DNA of 64,000 nucleotides from Pholiota molesta (taxonomy: Eukaryota > Basidiomycota > Agaricomycetes > Agaricales > Strophariaceae): contig JACGCK010000022.1 of NCBI GenBank assembly GCA_014925825.1, positions 124,001-188,000 of the forward strand, in the 5' to 3' direction. Shown here in pieces: positions 20,713 to 59,537 of this stretch (within the stretch, counting starts at the first letter, position 1; each line of letters starts with the position of its first letter). Both the position numbers and the translations under genes were made by a program. The notes below the pieces were generated by a model. That model saw nothing but the letters and a program-made list of their open reading frames with translations, did not search any database and had not been told where the DNA came from.

Positions 20713-25797
<5,085 letters not shown>

Positions 25798-36902: not shown

Positions 36903-39249
36903 TCAATGCGATCGATACTGGGCAACATAGGCCTTATCATCGCTGCTCAGACCAAACTCAAATTTCTCGAATATATGAGTCGCTTCATGGAATTCCCTCT
37001 TAATGATCTCCATTGTTTCCGCTGATTGAGGAGTGATAGAGGCTTTGAATGGGCATGGGCCAGTCAAGATACCCTACAGGATGATGTATTCATTAGAGCA
37101 TGAGAAAGATCCTCGCATGGCTGGAACTTGGAAGTATGAAACTAGCTCACCTTTTGGTAATCGTTAACGTCCACGTCGATAAGTTTGCCAGTGGCGGAAT
37201 CAGTTGCGGGGGCAAAGCTGAACGCCCATAACAGCCTCATAGTATTGATGTTCTGCCAATGAGAGCGTAAAGAAGACTATTTCCGAGTGAATAAGAAAAT
37301 GATAACATACAATCGAGTTCTGTGCAAGGTGGATTCCGGGGCAAATTCGCTGCGGTCACGAAATTGTCAGGATCCATGATAGTGAAAGAATAATCAACTA
37401 TTCACTCTTCCACATCCAAATGCGAGATTAGGCCTCAAATCACTTCCATCAACGCCGGGTTTCGTGCCGTTCTCAGTTAGCAGATACCGTTCAGGATTAA
37501 AGACGTCAGGATTGTCGTACAACTCTGGTTGTAAAATTAGGTTGAGAACATAGCAGTAAAGAACATCATCCACGCTCACCTGGGTCGTGGAAGATACCCC
37601 CTGATATCATTTGATGCACTCAGTCTTCGGACTTCCCTAGTATTGAATTAGAATAGATAGACGCACAAATATTGACGAAGATTGTGGAGCCTGCAGGGAT
37701 AATGAAACCTTTGTACTGCGTGTCGTCAGTCAGTCAGGCCGTTTGGGCTGACGTGGACAAAGAAGCGATACAATTACCTCTTCCTGAGCAATGTTAGCAT
37801 GAGGAATCATTAAAGGTGCGAGAGGGCGGAATCGGTGAGTCTGACAAAGGAAGTATAAATGTCACCAAGTAGAAAATATTCGATTCCGAAGAATGAGGCC
37901 CTCACCTCCTGAATTATAGCTCTGATGTAAGGTAAATCTTGAAGATCGTCTATGACGGGAAATCTATGGCGACCAACGACGCGATTGAGTTCATGCTGAG
38001 CTTTCTTCTGCGTTTCTGGGAACGCAATCATGGCAAGGATCACGGAATGAAGGAATGAGGATGTCGTGTCGGAACCGCCTTCGAGGAGGGCGCCCCCGAG
38101 GTACCTAAGTTGAAATCCGAAGCAAGGGTCAATACTTGACTGCCGTATCAGATTGTCGATCACATAAGTACCCGGTAATCTCCCTATCCATACCAACGTC
38201 TTCCTGATTCCGAAGGATCTCCTCCATATAACTTCCATTCTCCTCACCCGTTTCCACTCGCCTTCTAGTCTCGTCCAAAAGGCCAAAGTAGAGATCTCGC
38301 TGATGCTTTCGACATTGTTTGACATCAATCTTCCACTTTGCCCAGCGCTCTGGAACCTTTTGAAGGAAGGGAAGTAAATCCAATGGCGGGGTAGCGCCTG
38401 GTTCAAGAAGCAATTCCCATTCGTGCTGGGCGACGAAGAACGCTGTCGTTTCAGGGGTCTCGTATCTAGGACATCTTTTGCCGTACAAGACGGACATAAT
38501 GGCTGAGTTTGAGTACCGCCGAATGTGGGTGTAGAATGACTGGAATGTCGCAATGAGATCAGACCACAGAGACAAAATCGCTTTACTTACCTCCGGGGTT
38601 TGAAGGATGTCATAGAGAAGCTGCGTTGATTCAGCCATTTGTATGGGAAGATGTTTGGCAGACATTTGTGGCGTTAGTATAGTATGCCCCATCTTGCGCA
38701 AGGTCCTCCAGGTTTCAGCTGCGTTTTGGCGAAGTTCGAGTGTCAAAAAAATAAGAATAAATAAATGGTTGACATGTTGGCCTACAATAGCGAGCAAGAA
38801 CCATGTTAAATCCTCCAGCAACAGAGTCTGCGATAAAGTTTGCTGGCCGATCACTCGTATTTTGACTGCGCTTGTCCATGAGTTCCTTGATGGCAGCAGC
38901 GTCTGTGATCACTATGGCGGTTCCGGGGCCCATTTTGAGCTGCAACGATAAGCTCGTCAGTCACCCTCGACAAAGTAAGGCTTGATAATAACTCACGGAA
39001 TAGATGCCTCCCCAAATGCGTGCCCACTCGGTCAATCTAGGGACGAAAAGGTTCGCTTCAGGTGTTCCAGTGGAAGCAAAGGACTTACTTAATGTTTGCA
39101 AATTCATTTGGAAACATATGCAAGTTTCCCAGGAGGGGGATGGTCGGAGGACCTGGAGGAAGCCTTGGTTCTCTGCTTCCGACATTCCTCAGCTTGAGAT
39201 ACGCCCAGGCAATCGCAGTGAAGAACGCGAGCAGTAACAGAGGGGCCAT
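36903..39249 (-). CDS. Cytochrome P450 monooxygenase
   Basis: A heme-thiolate oxygenase anchored in the ER membrane, probably acting in secondary metabolism or detoxification; substrate unknown. The ATG at 39249 gives a membrane anchor (MAPLLLLAFFTAIAWAYLKL) and the proline hinge LPPGPPTIPLLGNLHMFP. The I helix reads GGALLEGGSDTTSS, the K-helix region PYIRAIIQE with HRFRP after an intron, the PERF-type region FNPERYL, and the heme loop LAFGCGR joined to RICPGIHLA by splicing; that Cys binds heme. Stop at 36903-36905. More than ten introns, some exons very short. The TTG at 39318 is not a likely start. Confidence 0.88.
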
Positions 39250-45809: not shown

Positions 45810-48800
45810 ATGCGCCTCCCGCTTTACACGCTCTTTCTCTCCCTCGCCACTCTCTTCTCGCTCTCTCCGCCCGTGCACTCCATCCACCCTCATGCACTCA
45901 GCCGTCGAGCTCACGGACACTCTTCCCCTCCTTATGCACTAACTTCTCGCCAGCATCACGTCGCCCGTGACCTTTTGGACATATGTATCAATGCGGACCT
46001 GAACCTTGGTGTTGATGTCTCTCAGATACTCGACCTTGGTTCATTGCTCGGCCCTACCGATCTTGGGACAACGGTTCACCTTTGTTTGTGCCTCAAAGTC
46101 AGTATGGCCTCGTAAAAAGCGCATATATACAAACTGATTTTTCTCTACGTTAGGATTTGAATATCTATCTCGAAACAAACGATGATATCCAAGCCCTTGT
46201 TACGCTTCTTGGGAAAAATGTGGTCTCGGCTCTAATTACTGCACTTGTAGGCCCTCTTTTTTCCTGTTAGAACGTGTATTGAACTCGTGCAGATCGACAC
46301 TTCGCCTGACGCTAAACAGTGCACCTTCCCACCAAATGCGCACCATACTTGCAATAATTCCGACCCTTGCCATTACGAATGTGATACCAATTACGTCCGG
46401 AATGGTGATACTTGTGTCTGCGCTCCGCCAAACATCTCTTGCAACGGCGTGTGTGGTAGTTTCCCCAAGGTGAGCACTTTTTATCGCGCATATATTTACA
46501 ATATATAGTTTTTTTTTGGCCCTATCTTTATGTCGTGCTGATTTCTACACAGGGTTGTGGGTCAGCTGTGCCTGCAAAAAAGAGGGCAGAGCCAATTCGT
46601 ACACTCGCCCAGGCCAAAGCAGCTTGCAAACCCCACGAAGCTGTTTGCGGCGTTTCAGGAGGAGTTGGTGCCTTTGCTTTCGAATGCATTGATATCAGCA
46701 CGACCAAGGATAGCTGTACGGGTTCACCAGTCAATCATTCCCATTTTTTTCATTCTGAGTTTTATCATAGGTGGCGGCTGCATGGTTCCTCACCCATTCG
46801 TCGATGAAGCGCCCGGCCATCAAACTGTCGGTAAAGATTGTGGCAATATTTCGAACGTCAAGAGTTCGACATGCTCTGCCAAAAAATGCATTGTACATTC
46901 TTGTCAAAATGGTTGGCTCCCTGATCCCACCAAGGAAGAATGCCTCTCATCTTCTACTGGCTCGAGAATGCGCCGAGTCAGAAGAAGTGCCCTTCCCTTA
47001 GTTGTTAACGCTACATCCAATGCAAATATCGACTCTGGTCTTGTCACGCAACTGGTTGCTATTGTCGATGCCGTTCTTGGCCTCGGCGTCCCTCAGGCGA
47101 ATTCGACTCTTTCTCCTGTACCTGCATCGACCTCTTCGTCCTCCACGTTCTCTACCATATCTGCGATATATTCTCTTTTCAATGATGTCCGTCGCGCTAC
47201 AGGAAACCTAATTGCCTCCTCCACCGTTTCCGAGTTTTTGGCTAAAACTGATAACCTCCTCGATACGAGCGCTCTCCTCAAGTCCATGTTGAATGATTGC
47301 AGATGCATTCACAGTCTAGGGCTCTCAGAGGTCTCCGCAGAGTTGACCAATCTCATCGCGTCCGTGTCTACCATGCAGAACTGGTGTTCCCATAATTCTA
47401 TTATTCCAGGTTCTACCATTCCAAGCTCCGATTCCCCTCATCAGCCAATCGTCATTGGTCTTACCGATCTACTCGCCGACCTTGGCTTAAATGGGAAGTC
47501 CGGCGCTTCTGTTAACGGCCTCGGTAACAGCTTGTCCAGTAGCGCCAACGGGTTACTCGACGACGCGAGTTTGGGCCTCAACAACTACAAGCGAACCGAT
47601 GTTGCAAACATCGGAGCCAACGCGACCATAAACTCGGATCTGTTGGCGAAAATTGTCGCTCTGGTTGATCTCATCATCAATCTTCGTGGAGATACCACTT
47701 CTCTTCCAGTATCTTCCACGACCGCCAATTTATCTTCACCATCGAGTCCAACTTCTACGCTGGACGTCAATGGCCTTGTCAATTCCATCCTCATTGCCAC
47801 TGTACACATCCTTAATTCCTCGACATCCTCCTCGCTTACCTCTTCTATCGATTATCTGGCCCAAACACTCACCGAAGTGAATAGTTTATTGAGCCAATGC
47901 GAGTGCATAGATGGGCTTGGTCTTGATATTTTGGTCGCAGACCTCGAACGGATTGTCATTGGAGCTCTGGATGTGCAAAGCTTGTGCCACGGTCACCCCA
48001 TCTTATCTTCTCCATATTCATCATCTACCCATCCAGCAACGCCGCTTTCGAGCTCTTCGTCACCCACTGCCAGTCCTGCTGCTTCGAGTGATGTTCCAAT
48101 CGTCGTTGGATTATCTGATCTCCTCTCTGACCTTGGCCTTTTGGGACCTGTGAAAAGCAGCGTAGCGGTGGCTGGGTTAGAATCTGGCCTGAGCGACTCT
48201 ATCAACAAATTGCTGGACGGATTGGATATTGGACCCGCTAACGCTAGACGTGATGTTGATTCCAATCTTTCTGCGGACGTCAATGGAACCGCTGCAATCA
48301 ATTCGCAGCTCAGATCCCTTTTGGAGGGACTTGTCGATTTGGTCCTCGATCTCGAAGACTCGATGAGCTCCCTTCCTCCTCCTCCTGCTTCAGACGCGTC
48401 CACGAGTTCATTGAACGCGAACTCGGTATTGGGTGTTGCCCACTCTCTTGCGCAACTTCTTCAATCGAAGACTGTTGGGGCGCTGCTGGCTAACGTTGAC
48501 GCCTTCGTCGATGCTGTATCAGCTTTGCAGGATCGGTTCACTAGTTGTGCGTGTGCGGAGTCGCTGGGGTTGGAGCAGGCGTCGAAGTACTTGCAGCTTG
48601 TCGGCGAAGCTGCTGTGGGCTTGCAGACATGGTGTGCGTCGAATTCGATTGTGGCCTCTGGCACCCCTGCGAACCCAAGTCCCACTTCGCTTGGTCCCCT
48701 TCTACCAACAGGTCTGTGTTTTTATTTTCTGTGTGGTATCCTTGGACTGAGAATCCGTGGTATAGGTGGCGGTCCGATGGTTAAGCCTCCTGCAGCACGA

Positions 48801-49865
48801 GTTTCTGCCACGACGTCTCCGATTGCGCTTCCTACCCCAGTGACTTCTTCTCCGCGTCCTTCTACATCGACCTCGTCTGCTGTATCAGGAGATACACATA
48901 TCATTATTGGCCTTGATTATCTTCTGGCCCGCCTTGGACTGGGCACAGGTGTCGTTACTGTTGACGGCCTCGGTGACGGTGTAGACTCTACCATTAACGG
49001 ATTGTCGAACGATCTCTCGATTGGACCCGATGATGTTCGTCGTCGAGGTGTTTTCGATTGGAAACTGGTGAAGCGTCAGGGTTTGCTTAGGGAAAGAGAA
49101 GAGAAACGGCAGATTTCTATCACGGCTATTTCGAATGCGACTGTTGACTCAGATCTGCTTGTTCAAATCGAGGCCCTTGTCAACCTGATCCTTGGGTTGA
49201 ACAGTGCCGCGACCTCCTTGGCACCCGCTGCACCATCGACCCCGACGGCGTCTGCGACAGCCACTCCCTCGCTACCAACCTCGTCTATCTCATCTTCCAT
49301 TTCCTCTGGTTCAACTTACACTATCGATTCTTGTCTCGTTGACAGTATCATCAACACGACCATCGCCCTTCTCTCGTCGGAGACATATGAAGAGTTGCTG
49401 GAAGAGACTAATGCCCTCGTTTCTGCAAGCACCCTCTCGCTGACGACCTTGGAAGGATGTGACTGCGTCAAGGATTTGGGGTTGGATTCGTTATACGGAT
49501 ACCTGATCCAAATTGTGGACGCTTCACTGGCCCTGCAGGATTTGTGCCACAGTCATACACCGCCGCCTCTTGGGCCTTCGCCGTCTGCCGGAACGCCGTC
49601 CATTCCTCTGCCAACTCCGATTCCTGCTACCTCGTCGACGCCAGGTTCCAGCAATAACACCACCACTTCAGGTGGCGATGAGCCTCTCGTCATAGGGCTG
49701 ACAAAGCTTTTGCAAGGGTTCGGGATCAATGCCGATGCCGATGTTGTTGTAGATAAATTGCTGGGGAACAGTCTTGATCATACTGTCAACTCGGTGCTCA
49801 ACGACCTAGGGATTGGCCCCAATGGGGCCAGAAGACGACTCGTCGCGCGCGTAGATGAGTCGTAG
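45810..49865 (+). CDS. secreted CPL1-like protein with four repeat modules and dibasic sites
   Basis: Six exons (45810-46097, 46154-46246, 46293-46469, 46553-46721, 46771-48711, 48766-49865) give 1255 residues. A signal peptide covers about the first 24 residues. Cysteine-rich sequence follows (residues 128-186), then a CPL1/priA-like domain at about 205-295 (GVSGGVGAFAFECIDISTTK, DCGNISN, CSAKKCIVHSCQNGWLPD). The rest is four related modules of about 205-250 residues. Each starts like NATINSDLLAKIVALVDLI, contains a CxC..LGL element, then a WC or LC element, then a VIGLTDLLADLGL-type stretch, and ends in IGPxxARR or NNYKR. Basic pairs stand between modules: RR at 46971 and 46980, KR 47589, RR 48246, RR 49038, KR 49071, KR 49104, RR 49830. 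They look like Kex2 sites. The linkers are Ser/Thr/Pro-rich and probably O-glycosylated. Function unknown; a cell-wall or extracellular role is likely. Confidence 0.85.
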
Positions 49866-51198
49866 ACGCTGGTCTTTCAGCCTCGGTCCATTGCAATTCA
49901 CTCGTTCTCGTGAGTTTTTTTGTCTTTCTTTTTCACTTGCTTGAACGACTGACAAATGTCACGTATGTTTTGATTTGAAGAGCCATTTGTCTTGTCTGGT
50001 GCTCGTTCGTTATTTGATTTTCTCTCCTCTTTTTCTGTTTTCTTTTGATCTTGAGCTTCACCTTTCTTGCGACGCGATCCCACTCGTTTTCCTCTTCATT
50101 TTAACTTTAAAGCCGGTTCATATTCAGCCTTGCGATCTGGACGCTGGAACCCTAAATATTTCGCTGGACGCTAAACCCCTCGTTCCCTGACTTGTGAAAG
50201 GACACTTTTGTAACCTTGGTACTGCGCTCTTGCCGATGTTTCCCTGCTACTTTGCATAATACATATGTGGTGCTGGTGAACATCGCAATCTTTATCTGAC
50301 AGGTCTCATGCACGAACGGAGTATAACACACGCGCGCAGTCGGTCGGGAATACGAAGTTCGAACAGAGCAAATCGACAGCCGGTACTAGCCAGTACTACA
50401 GCTTGGAACCCAATATGGATGACGCTGATCATGACTACGCCCACTCTCTTCTCCTTCTTTCATCCTTCAACATCTCGAAACCTATTAATTTGATCTCGCT
50501 GAACATCCCAAAAATTGAATTCGAAGGCTAATAATCAACCAATAGCTTGCTGAGCACAACGCACATTCGTCAGAAGGTCTAACCATAAAGCAACAGGTTT
50601 ACTATCTGCTCGCTTTAGATGGCATTCGGTCTAGGTCTTGTCGAATGCTCACTCTGAAACTAGTTCGACGCGTTCAGGAAGTCGCATGCTACACCACTCC
50701 TCGCTCATTTTGGTCTGTTTAAAGAGACTATATTCAAAATATTGGCAGGCCGCCAGCCATACTGATTCATGGCAGCCCTAGCTAGTAGCTGGCCGCCATC
50801 TTTGAGCGCCATCTTCCAATCCCAATTGTGTTGCTGCCGTTCTCTCGCCTCTTCTTCTTCGTCCTATGACCCGTGCTCGCGTACTTTCATACGATTCTCG
50901 TCTCGATTGGCACGGAGCTAGCGAATGCCCTCGGACAGATCGAACTCTAAGGATACAGTTGGCGTTGTTGTACGTATCTTCAGAGTCTTCTGTGTCTTCA
51001 TGGGCTCGGCGAAATTACAGGCCCAGGTATATCGCTTTGCGATGACGCACGATTTCAGGAACGGTGGATCGCGAGGATTTCTACAAGATGTGGCACTACA
51101 CAGGCGTTTTCGCAGGTCTCGTTCTAAACTCTGGGACGTCGCTTTTGCAATTGTCGCTCTTCTCTCTCGTTATTTCAACTTTGAACCAACTCCGACAC
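49866..51198. other. intergenic region
   Basis: The left part is T-rich 3' flank. A frame at 50925-51248 has no family features. The last ~110 bp resemble the region upstream of the second Ppo gene (62670-62733), so the promoter was duplicated with the gene. Confidence 0.45.
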
Positions 51199-54100
51199 CA
51201 TGGCCGAGCTTACACCCAGTGCGTACCAGTATGCTGTGCTTGGTGTAACTTTCGCTAATTCAGATGGACCTGGGGCAGAGCAAACCTTTTTGATGGTTAT
51301 GAGGTCTCGAGTCGACATTCCTGGTCATTTGGACGACCAGGAGCCGGTACGTATATCTCATGGATATTACCACAATTTCTAATCGCCTTATTTATCCCAC
51401 TAGGCTGCATTGTTAACGGAGGTCGCGAAAATTGTGATACCTTTGGAAGGCCAAAAGCTGGTGAGATGCTCATTTCTTGTGTTGGTCTCCAATTTGACGG
51501 GGGGTAGATGTCGACGGCCATGCTCATGCTGAATGGACCACTGCGCACCGATCTTCCCGAAGAGTTGATCAAACCTTTAAAGTATGATGTTCGCCTTCTT
51601 GTTGCCTTGGTTGGTATCTCATGAAAACTGCCTCTAGCGACAAGCTCGTTGGAGTGATCTACGAGATGATGCGGCACCCATTGAAGAACTTGGCAGGTCA
51701 AGACTTCCGCACCGCAGGTGGGGCAGACAGGCTTGGTGCAGCTGGCATGCCCTATGCGCGGAGCGTCATCCCGAGGACCAACCCCAAGGAATATCCGGAT
51801 GCGGAAGAGGTCTTCAATAAATTGATGTTGCGTCAGCGTATTGGGGGAAAAGAGAGGGTGTTTTCTTTGCAACTTTCATGGTAGCTCACTCATAGCTAAC
51901 GCCGGTTTCTCAACATCCTCAGATTGTCAATCACCCCGAAGGCTTGAGCTCTCTGACTTTTGCCTATGGTACTCTGGTCATCCACTCTGTCTTCCGGTCT
52001 GCGCTCCAAGATCCCACGATGAACGAGACATCGTCCTCCTTCGATCTCTCTCCTCTGTGAGTGAAAGTTGTGGTCCAGCCAAGGCTAGATAACAATCTCA
52101 TTATTTGACTTAACCCCCGTGGTCCACAGTTATGGTGATAACATTGATGAGCAGATGGCAGTCCGCAACCGGATTGGTAGAGGTCTTCTTGCACCGGATT
52201 GTTTTGCAGACACTCGCAATCTTATCCTACCTCCGGCCGCTGCTGCCCTTCTCATTGTCTTCAACCGCAACCACAACGTGCGTACATAAATTTCACTCCT
52301 AAAAATAATTTTAATTCTTGATGAATATCTTTCTTACGCGCTCTCTAGTACATCGCGGCGGAGTTATTGAAGAACGAGAAGGATGCGCGCGGTTGGAGCG
52401 ATCCTCCTCCTGAAGACTCGCTCCGCCGAAACAAGCAAGACGAAGAGATTTTCCAGATCGCGCGACTCATCAAGTTTGTCTCATCTTCTGCATTTGCATG
52501 GCATTGATAAAATGTTAATTCGGAGTAAATAGCTGTGTCCATTTCGTCAACATCGTGATCACTGACTACGTCGGTGGTATAATAGGCTCGTACTTCACTC
52601 CGAATAGTATTATCTAAAACATATAACTGATATTTGCTGGCCTGCAGGTCGTACCAGAGGTGGTGGTGGCTGGCCAATGAACGCCATGGCTTTAGATGTG
52701 CGTTGTCCCACATGTCACAGCCAATGGACAGTGCCAGATAACTCATTATTCATGTTTTACCATAGCCAATTGTTCTCCCGGATAGGGCGATCACCTTCGC
52801 AAACGACCAGACCCAGGTTAATATCGATCATGACATGGGCACCGCAGCCTTCGACTTACCTTTAACCCTTTTCCTTTAGCCCATCAGAGCCACGCATGTA
52901 GGCAGGGCTCTTGGCAACCTTGTCAGCATCGAATTCAATACTCTGTGTGTAACATTTTTATCGACAATGACAATGTGATGTCAGTGGGAATACTCATTTA
53001 GTTAACAGGTATCGTTGGCATGCCACTTTGAGGTGAATTATCTTTGCTCATAGTCAAGGCCTTTCCTGTCAACTAAAAACACTCGTTCTTAATAGTGAGA
53101 TGGACGTCAAATGGATTGAGGACATCATCGAAGCAGCGCTAGGCCGCAATGACTTCGAAAACGTCTGCCTCGAAGTCCTTATTTCTTGATTGACCCCGTG
53201 CTAAAACTGTGTTACCATTTTCCAGCTCACACCCGAAGATTATATCCGCGCATTTAAGATCTCCGCTCCCAACAAGAACGAGGCTCCCACTGAGAGGACC
53301 TTTGGGGGTCTCGTTCGCGGCCAAGATGGCCACTTCAACGATGCAGATCTGGCGAGAATTATATTCGACGCTACTGAAGCCCCTGCTGGGATGTTCCGTG
53401 CCCATGGCACGCCTCAAAGTAAGTCTTGGAAACAGTGCCTCTAAGTAGAAACTCATGTTTTGGCTTTCAGTCATGGCGTTCATTGATATTAGAGGGATCC
53501 GGAGAGCGAGGGAAATGAAGTATGTCTCGCCTTTCCAAGCTATTCTTCCACCTATTTCTGACCCCCTTACCATTAGCACTTGCACTTTGAACGAGTTTCG
53601 AGAATGGCTCGGCTTGCCCAGTACGTGTCTTGTCGATATGGGCATGCTTTCATTTATCACAATTCTGACATGACAAATTGTTATAAAGAGTATAAGAGCT
53701 TTGTCGAATGGAACAAAGATCCCAAAGTCGCGCAAGCGGCATCTGATCTGTACGGCGGCGATATCGAGCGCCTCGAACTCTACGCTGGTCTTCACGCCGA
53801 GGGTGCTTCGGGCGACGGCCTCCAGAATTATGACTCGGAGCCGCTGCGGGTTAGCACCATGCGAAATGGTTTGTTATTTGATGCTATTGCTCTGGTGCGT
53901 TTGTGGTGGCCTACTTTGTCCATTCGATATTACGCTACAACAACTCCTATGATCTTAAATATAGATTCGCGGCGATCGCTTTCTCACCACCGCATTCAAT
54001 GGTTCGTCCACGTGTTGACTGTTACTATTACTATCTTTTCATTAGCTCAACCATTCCGTTAAATTAATAGAGGAAAATTATACCAAGACAGGTATCGCGG

Positions 54101-54996: not shown

Positions 54997-56220
54997 ATGC
55001 CAAATCATCCACCTTTTTTCGATGTCGATGGTTTTGGGTCCAACCTGTCGTATCAGACTCAAACCGCTCAAGGATACAGGAACTGCCACTCCAAGTCTCT
55101 CTTTGCTTCTGATAATTCTAAGCCTTTTACTACCCACCCCTCGTCCCGTCTCAGCGCTCTCCCGCAGGCGCTGGTAGCGCCACTAGCACAGGTGGCGCCC
55201 CATCCGCTTCACGGGGCCATCTTGACGTTGGAAAACGGTGCAGATCTGCGTCTTGACGGACTTGTGTTCGTTCAACAACCGCTGATTGGTTATGGGACAT
55301 GCGTGCTCTGCGCCACGGCCACTCGCAAGTGGAATACCACGGAGGACGCTCAGTTTCGACCAGCAGAACACCTCAAGCGCGAGGAAAACCAGTATGGAAA
55401 TCGAGTGCTGCAAATCTTGGTCATGACGGAGCTATTCCCCATCACAAAGCTAAAAACATCCCATGAGTTCGCTCCTGCTATTAGAAATATCTTCGAATGT
55501 AAGTCTCCGATAACAATTTGTTCAATTGCACGCCTGATTGATTTTTCCTTCCTCAGCTTACAGATTGCTCTATGAACATACAAAGGTCATCCATGGAGAC
55601 ATCAGCCTACACAGCCTAAAGTGCCGGAAGGTAGACGGAAAAATATACGGCGTGCTCATCGATTACGATTTGCCGCTTTTCTTCAAGAAATCGAAGCAAG
55701 GGCCAAGCACGAAACAGCGAATGGGGACGATGTCGTACATGGCCTTGGATCGCATCCTGCCTACCCTCTCGAAACATTTATACCGTCACGACCTTGAGTC
55801 GCTATTTTATGTCATTGTTGTTCTCGTGACTCGATACGACGGGGGTGAAGAAATCGAAGACCCGCCCTTTCAAGACTGGTTCGAACCAGACCCTGAATGG
55901 CTGCGAATAGTGAAGTTCGAGCCAACACCTAAATGGCTGAAATCAGTGAGATACTCATTTTTGAGAGAACTTCCAGCACAGCCCACATCCACTTTTGAAA
56001 ATTTGGGTTACTTTTTGCTCCGTATGGGGCTCAACATAAACATAAAATTTCAGTGAGGTTAACACGGATGGATAAGAATTCCAAAACCACATCAGTGGAC
56101 CAGGCCATCCTCGACTCAGAGTTTAATGATGAAACGCTTGGAGGGAACGTGGATTTCGACAAATTTCAAACACTCCTTAACAATATTAAGCCCCCAATGG
56201 GCCCTACCATTCACGGGTAG
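54997..56220 (+). CDS. FunK1-type protein kinase, N-terminally truncated
   Basis: FunK1 kinases are a fungal family expanded in mushrooms; most substrates are unknown. The first in-frame ATG is at 54997. A large exon reads to NIFE, and an intron (55501 to about 55557) joins it to SYRLLYEHTKVIHGDISLHS, the catalytic loop with HGDIS in place of HRD. YGVLIDYDLPLFF (DFG-like region) and RMGTMSYMALD follow, then HDLESLFYVIVVLVTR. A second intron (about 56009-56053) leads to the typical tail DETLGGNVDFDKFQTLLNNI, with stop at 56218-56220. At about 340 residues it lacks the usual N-terminal half with the ATP loop, so activity is doubtful. Confidence 0.75.
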
Positions 56221-56709: not shown

Positions 56710-58199
56710 TCATACTAGATTGTCTCCGAAGCTTGCTGAAACATATGTGCCCAGCTCCTGCGGGGACGACGCACCAATACCAAACTCCCAGCTCTCGCTG
56801 TGCAGCTGCCGGAGACTCTCGATCCCGATCTCCTCCTCAGCGGCGATTCGGGTATCTGAATTCTCAGCTAGGCGACTGCTGATACATGCCAAGCTTGACG
56901 CGTGGCGGCGCTCGTGGGAGCGCGCACAGTGGATGCTGTCGGTAGAGGAGCGGTTTGTCGAGGTGGCCGCGCTCGGATTGCGCTCCAGGCGTGCAATGGC
57001 CTCGTTCGTCTCAATGTCGTGCACTGCGCGCCCCAGGCCGACTTCAACGATTATGAGGGTTGGCACTATGCCGACGATTTGGATCAGGCCGGCATCCAGG
57101 ATGACCTAAAACGATCTGTTGATCACAGCTGGGAGAGACGAACAGATGGGACAGAACTCACACTCATGGTCTTCTGCCTCCGGAATGCTAGGTCCAAGAT
57201 GGTGTATAGCGAGTATAGAAACCCAGACTCAATTCTATCAAAAAGTGTCAGCTATAAGACCAATGAACGCGCGAAAGAGACTACTTACAGAATAGTGATA
57301 GTAGCATTATAACGTCGGTGAAGGCCAGAGCCAAGAATAAGCTTTGCCTTTCTTGCATGCCACCATATCCTTCCGGCTGTGAATAAATATTTTAATCGAG
57401 AAATCAACGTGTAACTGCCACTGAGAAAATGACTACATACCAGTAAGAGCGGTTAGGATGACATTGAGGATAAGGGTCATTATCAAATAAATCCAAGTTT
57501 TATCAATAAGACCTGAGGTGGACGCCACAAAAACGTAGCCGCACGCTAATAAGCCAAAGATTATCCTGAGTCATTTCACCAATAGTGAGTTTTTCCACAC
57601 ACCTGTACTCGCGAGGAGAAGAATCACTGGCCCAACTACCACCAGCTTTCTAAATTCCCAAACCATCCAGCACCTATATAGCAGCAGAGAATCTGCGATA
57701 ACACTTCAAACCATTAATAGCAGTTAGCTCTCATGCATTGGAAAAAAAATAGAAGAAAAGACGCGCACTTATTGGAAATATAGAGCCAGTACTTTGGCCG
57801 CACGTCTGCGGTCAAGCTTCCTTTCATCAGCTTTTCAAAGAGAATATGATAGGTATATACTATGTCGCTAGTGGCAAGTGCGAACATCGTCGTTGCCGAG
57901 ACGAGTAGAATCCAGTGGAGCTTTTTATGACGCGATAAGAGGACATACGCGCATATCGCGAAGAGGATTACATAAAGGCCTGTAAACAGAACTCAAATCA
58001 GCTTGAAAAATGATACCTATGAAAGACGCGGCCTTACTGACCATAAAAGAACGATTCCAACTGTACAATGTAATAGTATTGAGTTACAACCCGATAAGGA
58101 TATTGTTGGAAGACGACGTACGAGGGCAGCGCCAATATAGGGTGACAAACTCGTTGGAAAAGCGATATCCTGAGTGCTTGGGAACAATGACAAGGACAT
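56710..58199 (-). CDS. seven-helix membrane protein, Agaricomycete-specific family (copy D)
   Basis: Same family as the genes at 8039 and 10634, on the opposite strand. The ATG at 58199 gives MSLSLFPSTQDIAFPTSLSP and YIGAAL. The next exon reads LESFFYG (compare VESLLYG), then GLYVILFAICAYVLLSRHKK, LHWILLVSATTMFALATSDI, a YRC-type helix, then IWWHARKAKLILG, and ESGFLYSLYTILDLAF. The last helix PTLIIVEVGLGRAVHDIETN leads into a hydrophilic tail; stop at 56710. Introns are about 50-60 nt. Function unknown. Confidence 0.72.
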
Positions 58200-59537
58200 G
58201 ATGGAGCAGGAGACGCGTCTAAAGTGGCGTCGTCGCGTCTTGTTGTCGCGTTTTCTAGGATATGCTTGTTAAGTAATACAATTCCTCTGTGGCGTCGTAT
58301 GCCAAAGATATGAGAAATAAAAACAGACAACAGACAACAGAAAACAGAAAACAGAAAACAGGAAACAGAAAACCGACGTTCTCAAACGGGACAAATGTTT
58401 CTTCAATTCATCATATGTAGGCTGAAGTCCGCGCATGATAAAGGTGCGTTCCTCCCTTTTGTAGCACGGGCGTCTGGGTAATAGACCGAATGGGGCATGA
58501 ATCATGTTCGTTTTCCAGCCTGGTCTTATGTGGGTGTTCGCTTCAAGATGTGGGTCCTCATCAACAAGCGACCAAGCGCTGATGTTACCTAGTCATGGGC
58601 GGAATATTAGGACTGGAAGCGTGATATTCGGCTTCATTAACTATTGCATTTTCCTTGGCACCTTCGAAGTTCGTAAGACCTTCATTAGATGTGATGATTC
58701 AGTCTTGTAATTCATGATACATAACTTTGAGACAAGCACATAGAATGAATTAACCATTTGATAGTGCTCCAAAAAAGAAATTGGGCTCACTTGGTATCCA
58801 TAATCATCGCACGGAGTTACGTAGACAAAACAGCAATAAGAAAAAGGATGCATACAAGGCGCATCGATGGTCCCAAAATGTTCGATATGACCTGAACTGC
58901 ACTGCTGTCCAGGGCTTCAGAATTGGCGTTTGCGATCTTGCTGATGATTCCCGTGTGGTTCCATCTTAGATGCGAATGTTGAACTCAAAATGGGATTCAC
59001 GGAAGATGTTAGGCCGCTATAAGAAAGACCATTCGAAGCAGTAGAGTACCATACAGAAGGAAGCTGGGAAATGTGAACCATGGCATTGGGAGGAGGACAT
59101 GATGGAAGCAGCGCGGGTGCAAGTTGAAGAGGACACTTGGCTAGCACGAAAGTAGAGAATGTTTCCCACGCATGTTTCTCACGATTCACTTCCCCGGTCC
59201 GAATCCCGCCTTAGTCCAGCCTCTTGTAAGCTGCTTGCAAGTACTGAACTTGAAGTAGGTTCAAATAGATAAGTACTGAAGCTTGAAGTGGTATAAATGC
59301 CTTTTCCAGGAGCGGGGACCTCGTGTCCAGTCAATCTAAAGTTTAAAGTTAAGCAAAAACGATTTGTTTAGTTTTTTTTAGGGTAAAGGAAGACTTGAGG
59401 AAAACCGGAACCCCGTCTCGTATACTTACGGTACTTATACTGCGCCAGAATGTCCAAAGAATGCCTCAACAACCCAGTAAAACAGCTGTGGGATCTAATA
59501 TAAATAACCTGGGTTCTCACTCTGCAACCATCTGAGG
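58200..59537. other. intergenic region
   Basis: No supportable gene. Contains the simple repeat at 58318-58374. Open frames such as 58504-58710 and 58917-59189 show no family features. Confidence 0.45.
58318..58374 (+). repeat. simple repeat of ACAGAAA type
   Basis: About eight imperfect copies of a 7-bp unit (AAAACAG, with CAACAGA variants) run through this stretch. It lies about 120 bp upstream of the membrane-protein start codon at 58199. Confidence 0.85.

What the first reader, a model, noticed from the sequence alone, without database searches (positions are those of the whole stretch)
45810..49865. Secreted CPL1-like protein built as a chain of four modules separated by Kex2-like sites
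After a signal peptide and a CPL1/priA-like cysteine domain, four related modules of 205-250 residues follow. Each begins with an NAT..I.S.L..L.DLI motif and ends in a basic pair or triplet (NNYKR, ANARR, DDVRRR, GARRR). The spacing of basic pairs with module ends (residues about 310, 517, 736, 983 to 1004, 1247) suggests a polyprotein cut by the Golgi protease Kex2 into several secreted products. I know of no described CPL1-like protein with this architecture.
Basis: partly seen in the sequence, partly recalled or inferred. Interest (0 to 1): 0.75.

Follow-up and report, generated by a model that had tools for sequence, protein, structure and literature searches.

The report
Four-module secreted mushroom polyprotein precursor
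A mushroom gene encodes one long secreted protein made of a known cysteine-rich head and four related modules whose joints carry protease cutting signals, so it is probably chopped into several secreted proteins, a layout that earlier surveys were largely set up to miss.

Summary
The gene (45810-49865, six exons) gives a 1253-aa protein identical to a Pholiota molesta hypothetical protein. After a PF21671 (CPL1-like) head come four modules of 203-247 aa: a helix at an N-glycosylation sequon, a core with C-x-C...C, a Ser/Thr/Pro linker and a ~50-aa end unit finishing in a basic pair. In six four-module proteins 23 of 24 cores best match the same position elsewhere: old, differentiated modules. 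Basic pairs sit at the joints: 96 of 106 [KR]R positions fall in joints making up 1097 of 12247 residues (18 proteins); 35 of 43 complete end units are followed by [KR]R (rotation null 2.5). The last basic residue is Arg in 39 of 40, though Lys is commoner elsewhere; this fits kexin. Against: some orthologues keep a module and lose its pair, and a held-out distant set has only 5 of 13. Cleavage is inferred, not shown. Best reading: a PriA/Cpl1-family precursor cut by kexin into a head and up to four acidic ~20-24 kDa wall or matrix proteins. It works like a Kex2-processed repeat protein but fails the size limits of two published surveys: a new variant of a known kind.

The parts
45810..49865 (+). 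whole gene, six exons (45810-46097, 46154-46246, 46293-46469, 46553-46715, 46771-48711, 48766-49865), 1253 aa
   Evidence: translation identical to P0001
45810..45881 (+). putative signal peptide, residues 1-24
   Evidence: hydrophobic N-terminus read from sequence; no predictor run
45903..45908 (+). RR at residues 32-33, possible propeptide cut
   Evidence: [KR]R starts between residues 26 and 37 in 13 of the first 20 proteins
46679..46943 (+). CPL1-like domain PF21671, about residues 229-298 (split by intron 4)
   Evidence: Pfam E 2.8e-13, 50.2 bits, cut-off 27.4
46971..46985 (+). RRVRR, joint CPL1 head | module 1
   Evidence: a pair within 40 residues after the head in 21 of 24 scored homologues
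46986..47594 (+). module 1, residues 313-515, ends NNYKR
   Evidence: C, A and B elements
47190..47195 (+). internal RR (VRRATG) inside a predicted helix of module 1; not a joint
47595..48251 (+). module 2, residues 516-734, ends ANARR (KR in the other haplotype copy)
48252..49046 (+). module 3, residues 735-981, ends DDVRRR (intron 48712-48765 lies in its Ser/Thr/Pro linker)
49047..49109 (+). basic spacer, residues 982-1002, with KR 990-991 and KR 1001-1002 before module 4
   Evidence: several basic pairs at the joint before the last module also in P0002, P0003, P0004, P0005, P0006 and P0009
49110..49838 (+). module 4, residues 1003-1245, starts with Gln after the cut, ends GARRR
49839..49862 (+). 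8-residue tail LVARVDES after the last basic triplet; no hydrophobic anchor
   Evidence: sequence

Best explanation
It is a secreted precursor of the PriA/Cpl1 family. After removal of the signal peptide, Golgi kexin (Kex2) cuts C-terminal to the basic pairs at the joints, and a Kex1-type carboxypeptidase may trim the basic tails. Products: the Cys-rich CPL1 head (about 28 kDa before further trimming) and up to four acidic, N- and probably O-glycosylated helical proteins of about 20-24 kDa, made in equal amounts from one transcript. The modules are old and differentiated, so they most likely act as four related but distinct wall or matrix proteins of hyphae or developing tissue. Shown: architecture, position-specific conservation, pair enrichment and Arg at P1. 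Inferred: that cutting happens, and the site and role of the products.
For: In 18 proteins 96 of 106 [KR]R positions after the CPL1 head lie in joints making up 1097 of 12247 residues; composition shuffles give 1.3 on average, maximum 7 in 2000. With the basic tail left out of the B profile, 35 of 43 complete B units found in the first 20 proteins are followed by [KR]R within 12 residues; rotation null mean 2.5, maximum 12 in 5000. In all 30 proteins 40 of 56 complete B units are followed by two basics, and 39 of these 40 runs end in Arg, against an Arg share of 0.447 of K+R elsewhere; p 5e-13 if rows were independent, which they are not. Haplotype copy: 49 differing alignment positions, no pair lost, RR733 becomes KR. 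Modules keep their position: 23 of 24 cores of six four-module proteins have their best match among the others at the same position, and the tree groups them likewise with weak deep support. The genome has five P_proprotein (kexin P-domain) matches over the cut-off. Precedent: Cryptococcus Cfl1, placed in the PriA family, is secreted, partly cleaved and released as a paracrine signal (passages of PMC4047104 and PMC8893723).
Against: No protein-level data. Complete B units without a pair: 8 of 43 in the first set (in two of these the sequence ends within three residues) and 8 of 13 in the held-out distant set (two at the sequence end), including 0 of 3 in Arthromyces. Two further misses of the 43 (P0014, P0020) are doubtful as complete units. 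P. conissans, Phlegmacium and Mycena lack [KR]R at the CPL1 joint. The B profile was trained mostly on sequences with pairs. An odd Cys number (3 in 34 of 54 cores) leaves a Cys that could tie modules together after cutting. The AlphaFold model of the modules is poor (mean pLDDT 42.6).
Confidence: 0.72

Rival explanations
1. An uncut multidomain wall protein: glycosylated helical domains on stalks, a PriA-family adhesin or spacer; the basic ends are a structural or charge motif of the B unit.
For: Modules persist where pairs are lost: Hebeloma joint 1, Panaeolus joint 1, Psilocybe cf. subviscida joint 2, Arthromyces 0 of 3. Ser/Thr/Pro is 29-33 % of each own module, as in wall proteins. Where B is eroded the pair goes too in Hypholoma joint 1, Crassisporium joints 1 and 2 and Phlegmacium joints 1 and 2, as if it were part of B.
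Against: A charge motif would accept Lys in last place; 39 of 40 runs end in Arg. The CPL1 joint, which has no B unit before it, has a pair in 21 of 24. Laccaria, with no B unit found between its modules, still has KRD and KRG there, and the eroded last B of Phlegmacium is followed by RRRR.
Confidence: 0.18
2. Cut but not separated: kexin nicks the chain and the odd cysteines hold head and modules together as a disulfide-linked complex, as in some toxins and hormones (recalled). It shares the cutting step with the best explanation, so its odds overlap with it.
For: Three Cys in 34 of 54 A cores; 12 core Cys plus one more in module 4 of the own protein.
Against: The conserved C-x-C and C could pair within a core with one left over; no coupling between modules was seen or could be tested.
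Confidence: 0.2
3. Chance basic pairs in an ordinary repeat protein, or a gene-model artefact.
For: The internal VRRATG shows that pairs can occur outside joints.
Against: Rotation and shuffle nulls; four-core relatives in five other species with modules in the same order.
Confidence: 0.02

Closest known systems
PriA/Cpl1 fungal family (PF21671; PriA of Lentinula, Cfl1, Dha1 and Cpl1 of Cryptococcus)
   Same: CPL1-like domain in a secreted protein; Cfl1 is reported to be cleaved and released (PMC4047104, passages)
   Different: four Trichosporon asahii members are described with the CPL1-like domain within residues 47-324, and the passages seen mention no module chain (PMC12864254); here four helical modules follow the head
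Kex2-processed repeat proteins (KEPs; PMC6339444, PMC7329392, PMC9769878)
   Same: secreted precursor, at least three related units separated by KR/RR
   Different: units of 203-247 aa, 31-37 % identical to module 1, with cysteines and predicted helices; two surveys allowed repeats up to 100 aa (PMC7329392) or proteins up to 800 aa with fragments 70 % identical in the main screen (PMC9769878)
Repellent precursor Rep1 of Ustilago maydis
   Same: precursor cleaved into several peptides that control hyphal wall properties (PMC6339444, passages)
   Different: 37-aa peptides; absence of a CPL1 head is recalled, not checked
Polyhydrophobins (CFTH1, CPPH1 of Claviceps)
   Same: three to five secreted surface domains in one chain; cleavage is named as an open question (PMC12375992, passages)
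   Different: hydrophobin domains; no hydrophobin match in the 14 proteins scanned here

Membership tests
PriA/Cpl1 family (PF21671) | CPL1-like domain over the curated cut-off | tested here: met
   50.2 bits against 27.4; all 14 proteins of alignment A4 (14 of the 20 then held) match PF21671 at E up to 10, best 2.6e-19
PriA/Cpl1 family (PF21671) | signal peptide, secretion | not tested
   hydrophobic N-terminus read by eye; no predictor available
Kex2-processed repeat proteins (KEP) | three or more related units separated by Kex2 dipeptides | tested here: met
   four modules, each joint of the own protein with KR or RR
Kex2-processed repeat proteins (KEP) | repeats no longer than 100 aa (Umemura survey) | tested here: not met
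   modules 203-247 aa; limit in PMC7329392
Kex2-processed repeat proteins (KEP) | precursor up to 800 aa and fragments 70 % identical (Vogt survey, main screen) | tested here: not met
   1253 aa; 31-37 % identity to module 1; limits in PMC9769878 section 14
Kex2-processed repeat proteins (KEP) | released products detected | not testable with these tools
   needs mass spectrometry
HsbA surface-binding family (PF12296) | Pfam match | tested here: not met
   none in 14 proteins scanned at E up to 10; 6 PF12296 matches in the genome, none at this locus
Hydrophobins (polyhydrophobins) | hydrophobin domain match | tested here: not met
   none in 14 proteins scanned against Pfam at E up to 10
Plant invertase/pectin methylesterase inhibitor-like four-helix fold | fold match well above other four-helix bundles | tested here: inconclusive

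The most novel reading that the evidence does not exclude
Mushrooms of the Agaricales make a true secreted polyprotein: one gene encodes a CPL1 head and four distinct glycosylated helical factors that kexin releases together as paracrine or matrix signals, and such folded-domain precursors are among the unknown kexin substrates needed for fruiting.
Probability: 0.15. Interest if true: 0.82.

Novelty: new variant of a known kind. Interest (0 to 1): 0.56.

Why it matters
Two of the three published surveys of Kex2-processed fungal precursors that I looked into excluded long units or long proteins, so folded-domain precursors like this one would be overlooked. In Coprinopsis cinerea deletion of kex1, kex2b or kex2c abolished fruiting, while deletion of six peptide precursors gave no apparent phenotype, and the known peptides were still made in the kex mutants (PMC9769878 section 9); the substrates that matter are not known. 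[quoted passage not shown] My three protein searches, of limited sensitivity, list no C. cinerea relative.

Tried and rejected

Dropped or weak rows: P0016 and P0020 were left out. Of the 18 proteins in it, P0019 gave no joint and P0018 one eroded joint. In one search the CPL1 joint of P0010, P0012, P0018 and P0019 came out empty or too short; searches do not depend on that cut. In one search six of 30 proteins (P0007, P0016, P0020, P0026, P0027, P0029) gave no CPL1-end motif and are outside the 21 of 24. One short core (Amanita P0017, second) was left out of the tree, and the ten later proteins are not in it.

Full report
What is there. The gene starts at 45810 and stops at 49865. With six exons its product is 1253 aa and equals P0001, a hypothetical protein named by its source as Pholiota molesta BJ912DRAFT_251831; the species belongs to Agaricales, Strophariaceae. 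The genome holds a second copy on another contig (C71), 97.4 % identical over about 4.5 kb including flanks, and the DNA of 58000-59500 also matches that contig, in the same order and strand at 94 %. I read it as the other haplotype. It has GT..AG introns at the same places, an open frame, 38 synonymous and 48 non-synonymous codon differences and one missing residue. Its 13 [KR]R positions match the 13 of the window copy; one changes from RR to KR.

Architecture. A hydrophobic N-terminus is followed by a short basic stretch, a conserved N-terminal domain with CLCL, and the CPL1-like domain PF21671 (50.2 bits, cut-off 27.4). Then come four modules. Their alignment has 28 invariant columns in four rows. 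Profiles made from the own modules and iterated on the first 20 proteins split each module into C (a helix beginning at the NAT motif), A (a 74-residue core with C-x-C and a later C) and B (about 50 residues ending GIGPxNARR). The NAT motif is an N-glycosylation sequon: 26 of 41 C elements have N-x-S/T in a 15-residue window, against 9 % of all such windows. Between A and B lies a Ser/Thr/Pro-rich stretch; each module is 29-33 % S, T and P, is acidic (pI 4.05-4.4) and would weigh 20.5-24.3 kDa without sugars. AlphaFold gives long helices for C and A and short ones in B, at low confidence (modules 1+2, mean pLDDT 42.6).

Relatives. Three protein searches, each scoring only the 7981 or 7994 candidates that share most words, gave 30 different proteins including the own one: 12, 8 new, 10 new. 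Two (P0013, P0028) have no named organism. The named genera include Pholiota, Flammula, Hypholoma, Hebeloma, Crassisporium, Psilocybe, Galerina, Panaeolus, Laccaria, Phlegmacium, Agrocybe, Amanita, Hypsizygus, Arthromyces, Pluteus, Cylindrobasidium and Mycena. Pholiota molesta and five outlying species looked up are all Agaricales; for the rest I recall the same. Four A cores occur in Pholiota (two species), Flammula, Hypholoma, Hebeloma and Crassisporium and in Arthromyces and Hypsizygus; the other 22 have none to three, counting fragments. In Hebeloma the fourth module shows only its A core, and B units are eroded in places. Among the six four-core proteins, 23 of 24 cores have their best match in another of them at the same position. 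In a tree of 53 A cores (74 columns) first, second, third and last modules mostly group by position, and the last module of species with two or three falls with the fourth modules; deep forks are weakly supported and a few long rows sit elsewhere. So the modules are old and kept distinct, unlike peptide precursors with near-identical repeats.

Basic pairs. In 18 proteins, 96 of 106 [KR]R positions after the CPL1 head lie in joints that make up 1097 of 12247 residues; shuffles give 1.3 on average and 7 at most in 2000. Of the ten elsewhere, Laccaria's three lie between modules and Hebeloma's two at the C-terminus, where my joint rule found no B unit, and Phlegmacium's one is near its C-terminus; the other four are the internal VRRATG (Pholiota molesta, P. 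conissans and the unnamed relative P0013) and one ERRFTG in P. conissans. To lessen circularity I cut the B profile at GIGP and asked for [KR]R in the next 12 residues: 35 of 43 complete units in the first 20 proteins; rotating each protein against its joints gives 2.5 on average and 12 at most in 5000. On ten proteins not used for the profile only 5 of 13 have a pair: Hypsizygus 2 of 3, Arthromyces 0 of 3, Amanita species with one unnamed relative 3 of 6, Pluteus 0 of 1; two misses have no residues left. Over all 30 proteins 40 of 56 complete B units are followed by two basics, and in 39 of 40 the run ends in Arg, although Lys outnumbers Arg elsewhere in this part (281 to 227). Arg at P1 is what kexin needs (recalled); a mere charge motif would not demand it. 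The CPL1/module-1 joint, which no B unit precedes, has a pair in 21 of 24 scored proteins.

Results against. Some orthologues keep a complete B unit without a pair (Hebeloma joint 1, Psilocybe cf. subviscida joint 2, both Panaeolus at joint 1), and Arthromyces has no pair after any of its three complete B units. I take it as lineage-specific loss of individual cuts, not as refutation, because the enrichment in the proteins close to Pholiota is so strong. The numbers treat related sequences as separate, so formal p-values are too small.

Mechanism. Most likely kexin cuts at the joints in the late Golgi and releases the CPL1 head and up to four helical glycoproteins in equal amounts. Module 4 would start with Gln after KR, which can become pyroglutamate; pyroglutamated precursor-derived peptides are reported in C. 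cinerea (PMC9769878, passages). The genome has five P_proprotein matches over the cut-off. Each core often has three cysteines (34 of 54), so products may pair through a disulfide. The role of the products is open; family precedent points to hyphal surface and development: Cfl1 of Cryptococcus is cleaved, released and acts on neighbours (PMC4047104, passages), and PriA-family genes are tied to sexual morphogenesis (PMC8893723 and PMC10949477, passages).

Known or new. Membership by the CPL1-like domain is met. The protein works like a Kex2-processed repeat protein, but two published surveys excluded it by construction: repeats up to 100 aa (PMC7329392, passages), or precursors up to 800 aa with fragments 70 % identical in the main screen (PMC9769878 section 14). 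The third (PMC6339444 Methods) states no upper length there but relies on matching the smallest fragment as a motif and on at least 15 % repeat cover. I found no paper holding both CPL1 and Kex2 (none), one using the term CPL1-like, the same one naming PF21671, and one off-topic by title for Kex2, polyprotein, secreted and basidiomycete. These searches cover one open-access library only. Verdict: a real and unusual architecture, a new variant of a known kind, processing likely but unproven.

Noticed in passing
window 20825-25096, - strand: Shikimate-pathway multi-enzyme gene (shikimate dehydrogenase, type I dehydroquinase, EPSP synthase and dehydroquinate synthase C-terminal domains in neighbouring frames): looks like the usual fungal AROM arrangement (recalled), ordinary.
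   Followed up: partly
window 37813-38908, - strand: Cytochrome P450 fragments in two overlapping frames (PF00067, E 2.3e-14 over the cut-off and E 0.00025 below it).
   Followed up: no
window about 51000-54000, + strand: Intron-rich gene downstream that by eye resembles fungal fatty-acid dioxygenases (Ppo-like); recalled resemblance, the two short pieces scanned gave no Pfam match.
   Followed up: no
window 55538-56053, + strand: Piece of a fungal protein kinase (PF17667, E 5.4e-18).
   Followed up: no
window 47190-47195: VRRATG: an internal basic pair in a predicted module-1 helix, kept in both haplotype copies, Pholiota conissans and the unnamed relative P0013; either buried and uncut or an extra product boundary.
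   Followed up: partly
P0021 (Arthromyces) residues 462-679: Three very similar B units in a row, each ending GPGNV with no basic pair: a recent expansion of B alone.
   Followed up: no
P0016 (Gymnopilus), 313 aa: Predicted protein ends just after the CPL1 head at ERRNENA, about the place of the first joint; a module-less relative or a truncated gene model.
   Followed up: no
window 46577-46585: KKR at residues 195-197 between the two halves of the cysteine-rich head, with a pair at a similar place in P0002, P0003, P0004, P0007 and P0016: a possible further cut within the head.
   Followed up: no
G000 C71 against window 47-58 kb: The two haplotype contigs differ by roughly 5.8 kb in spacing between this gene and 58000, an insertion or deletion not examined.
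   Followed up: no
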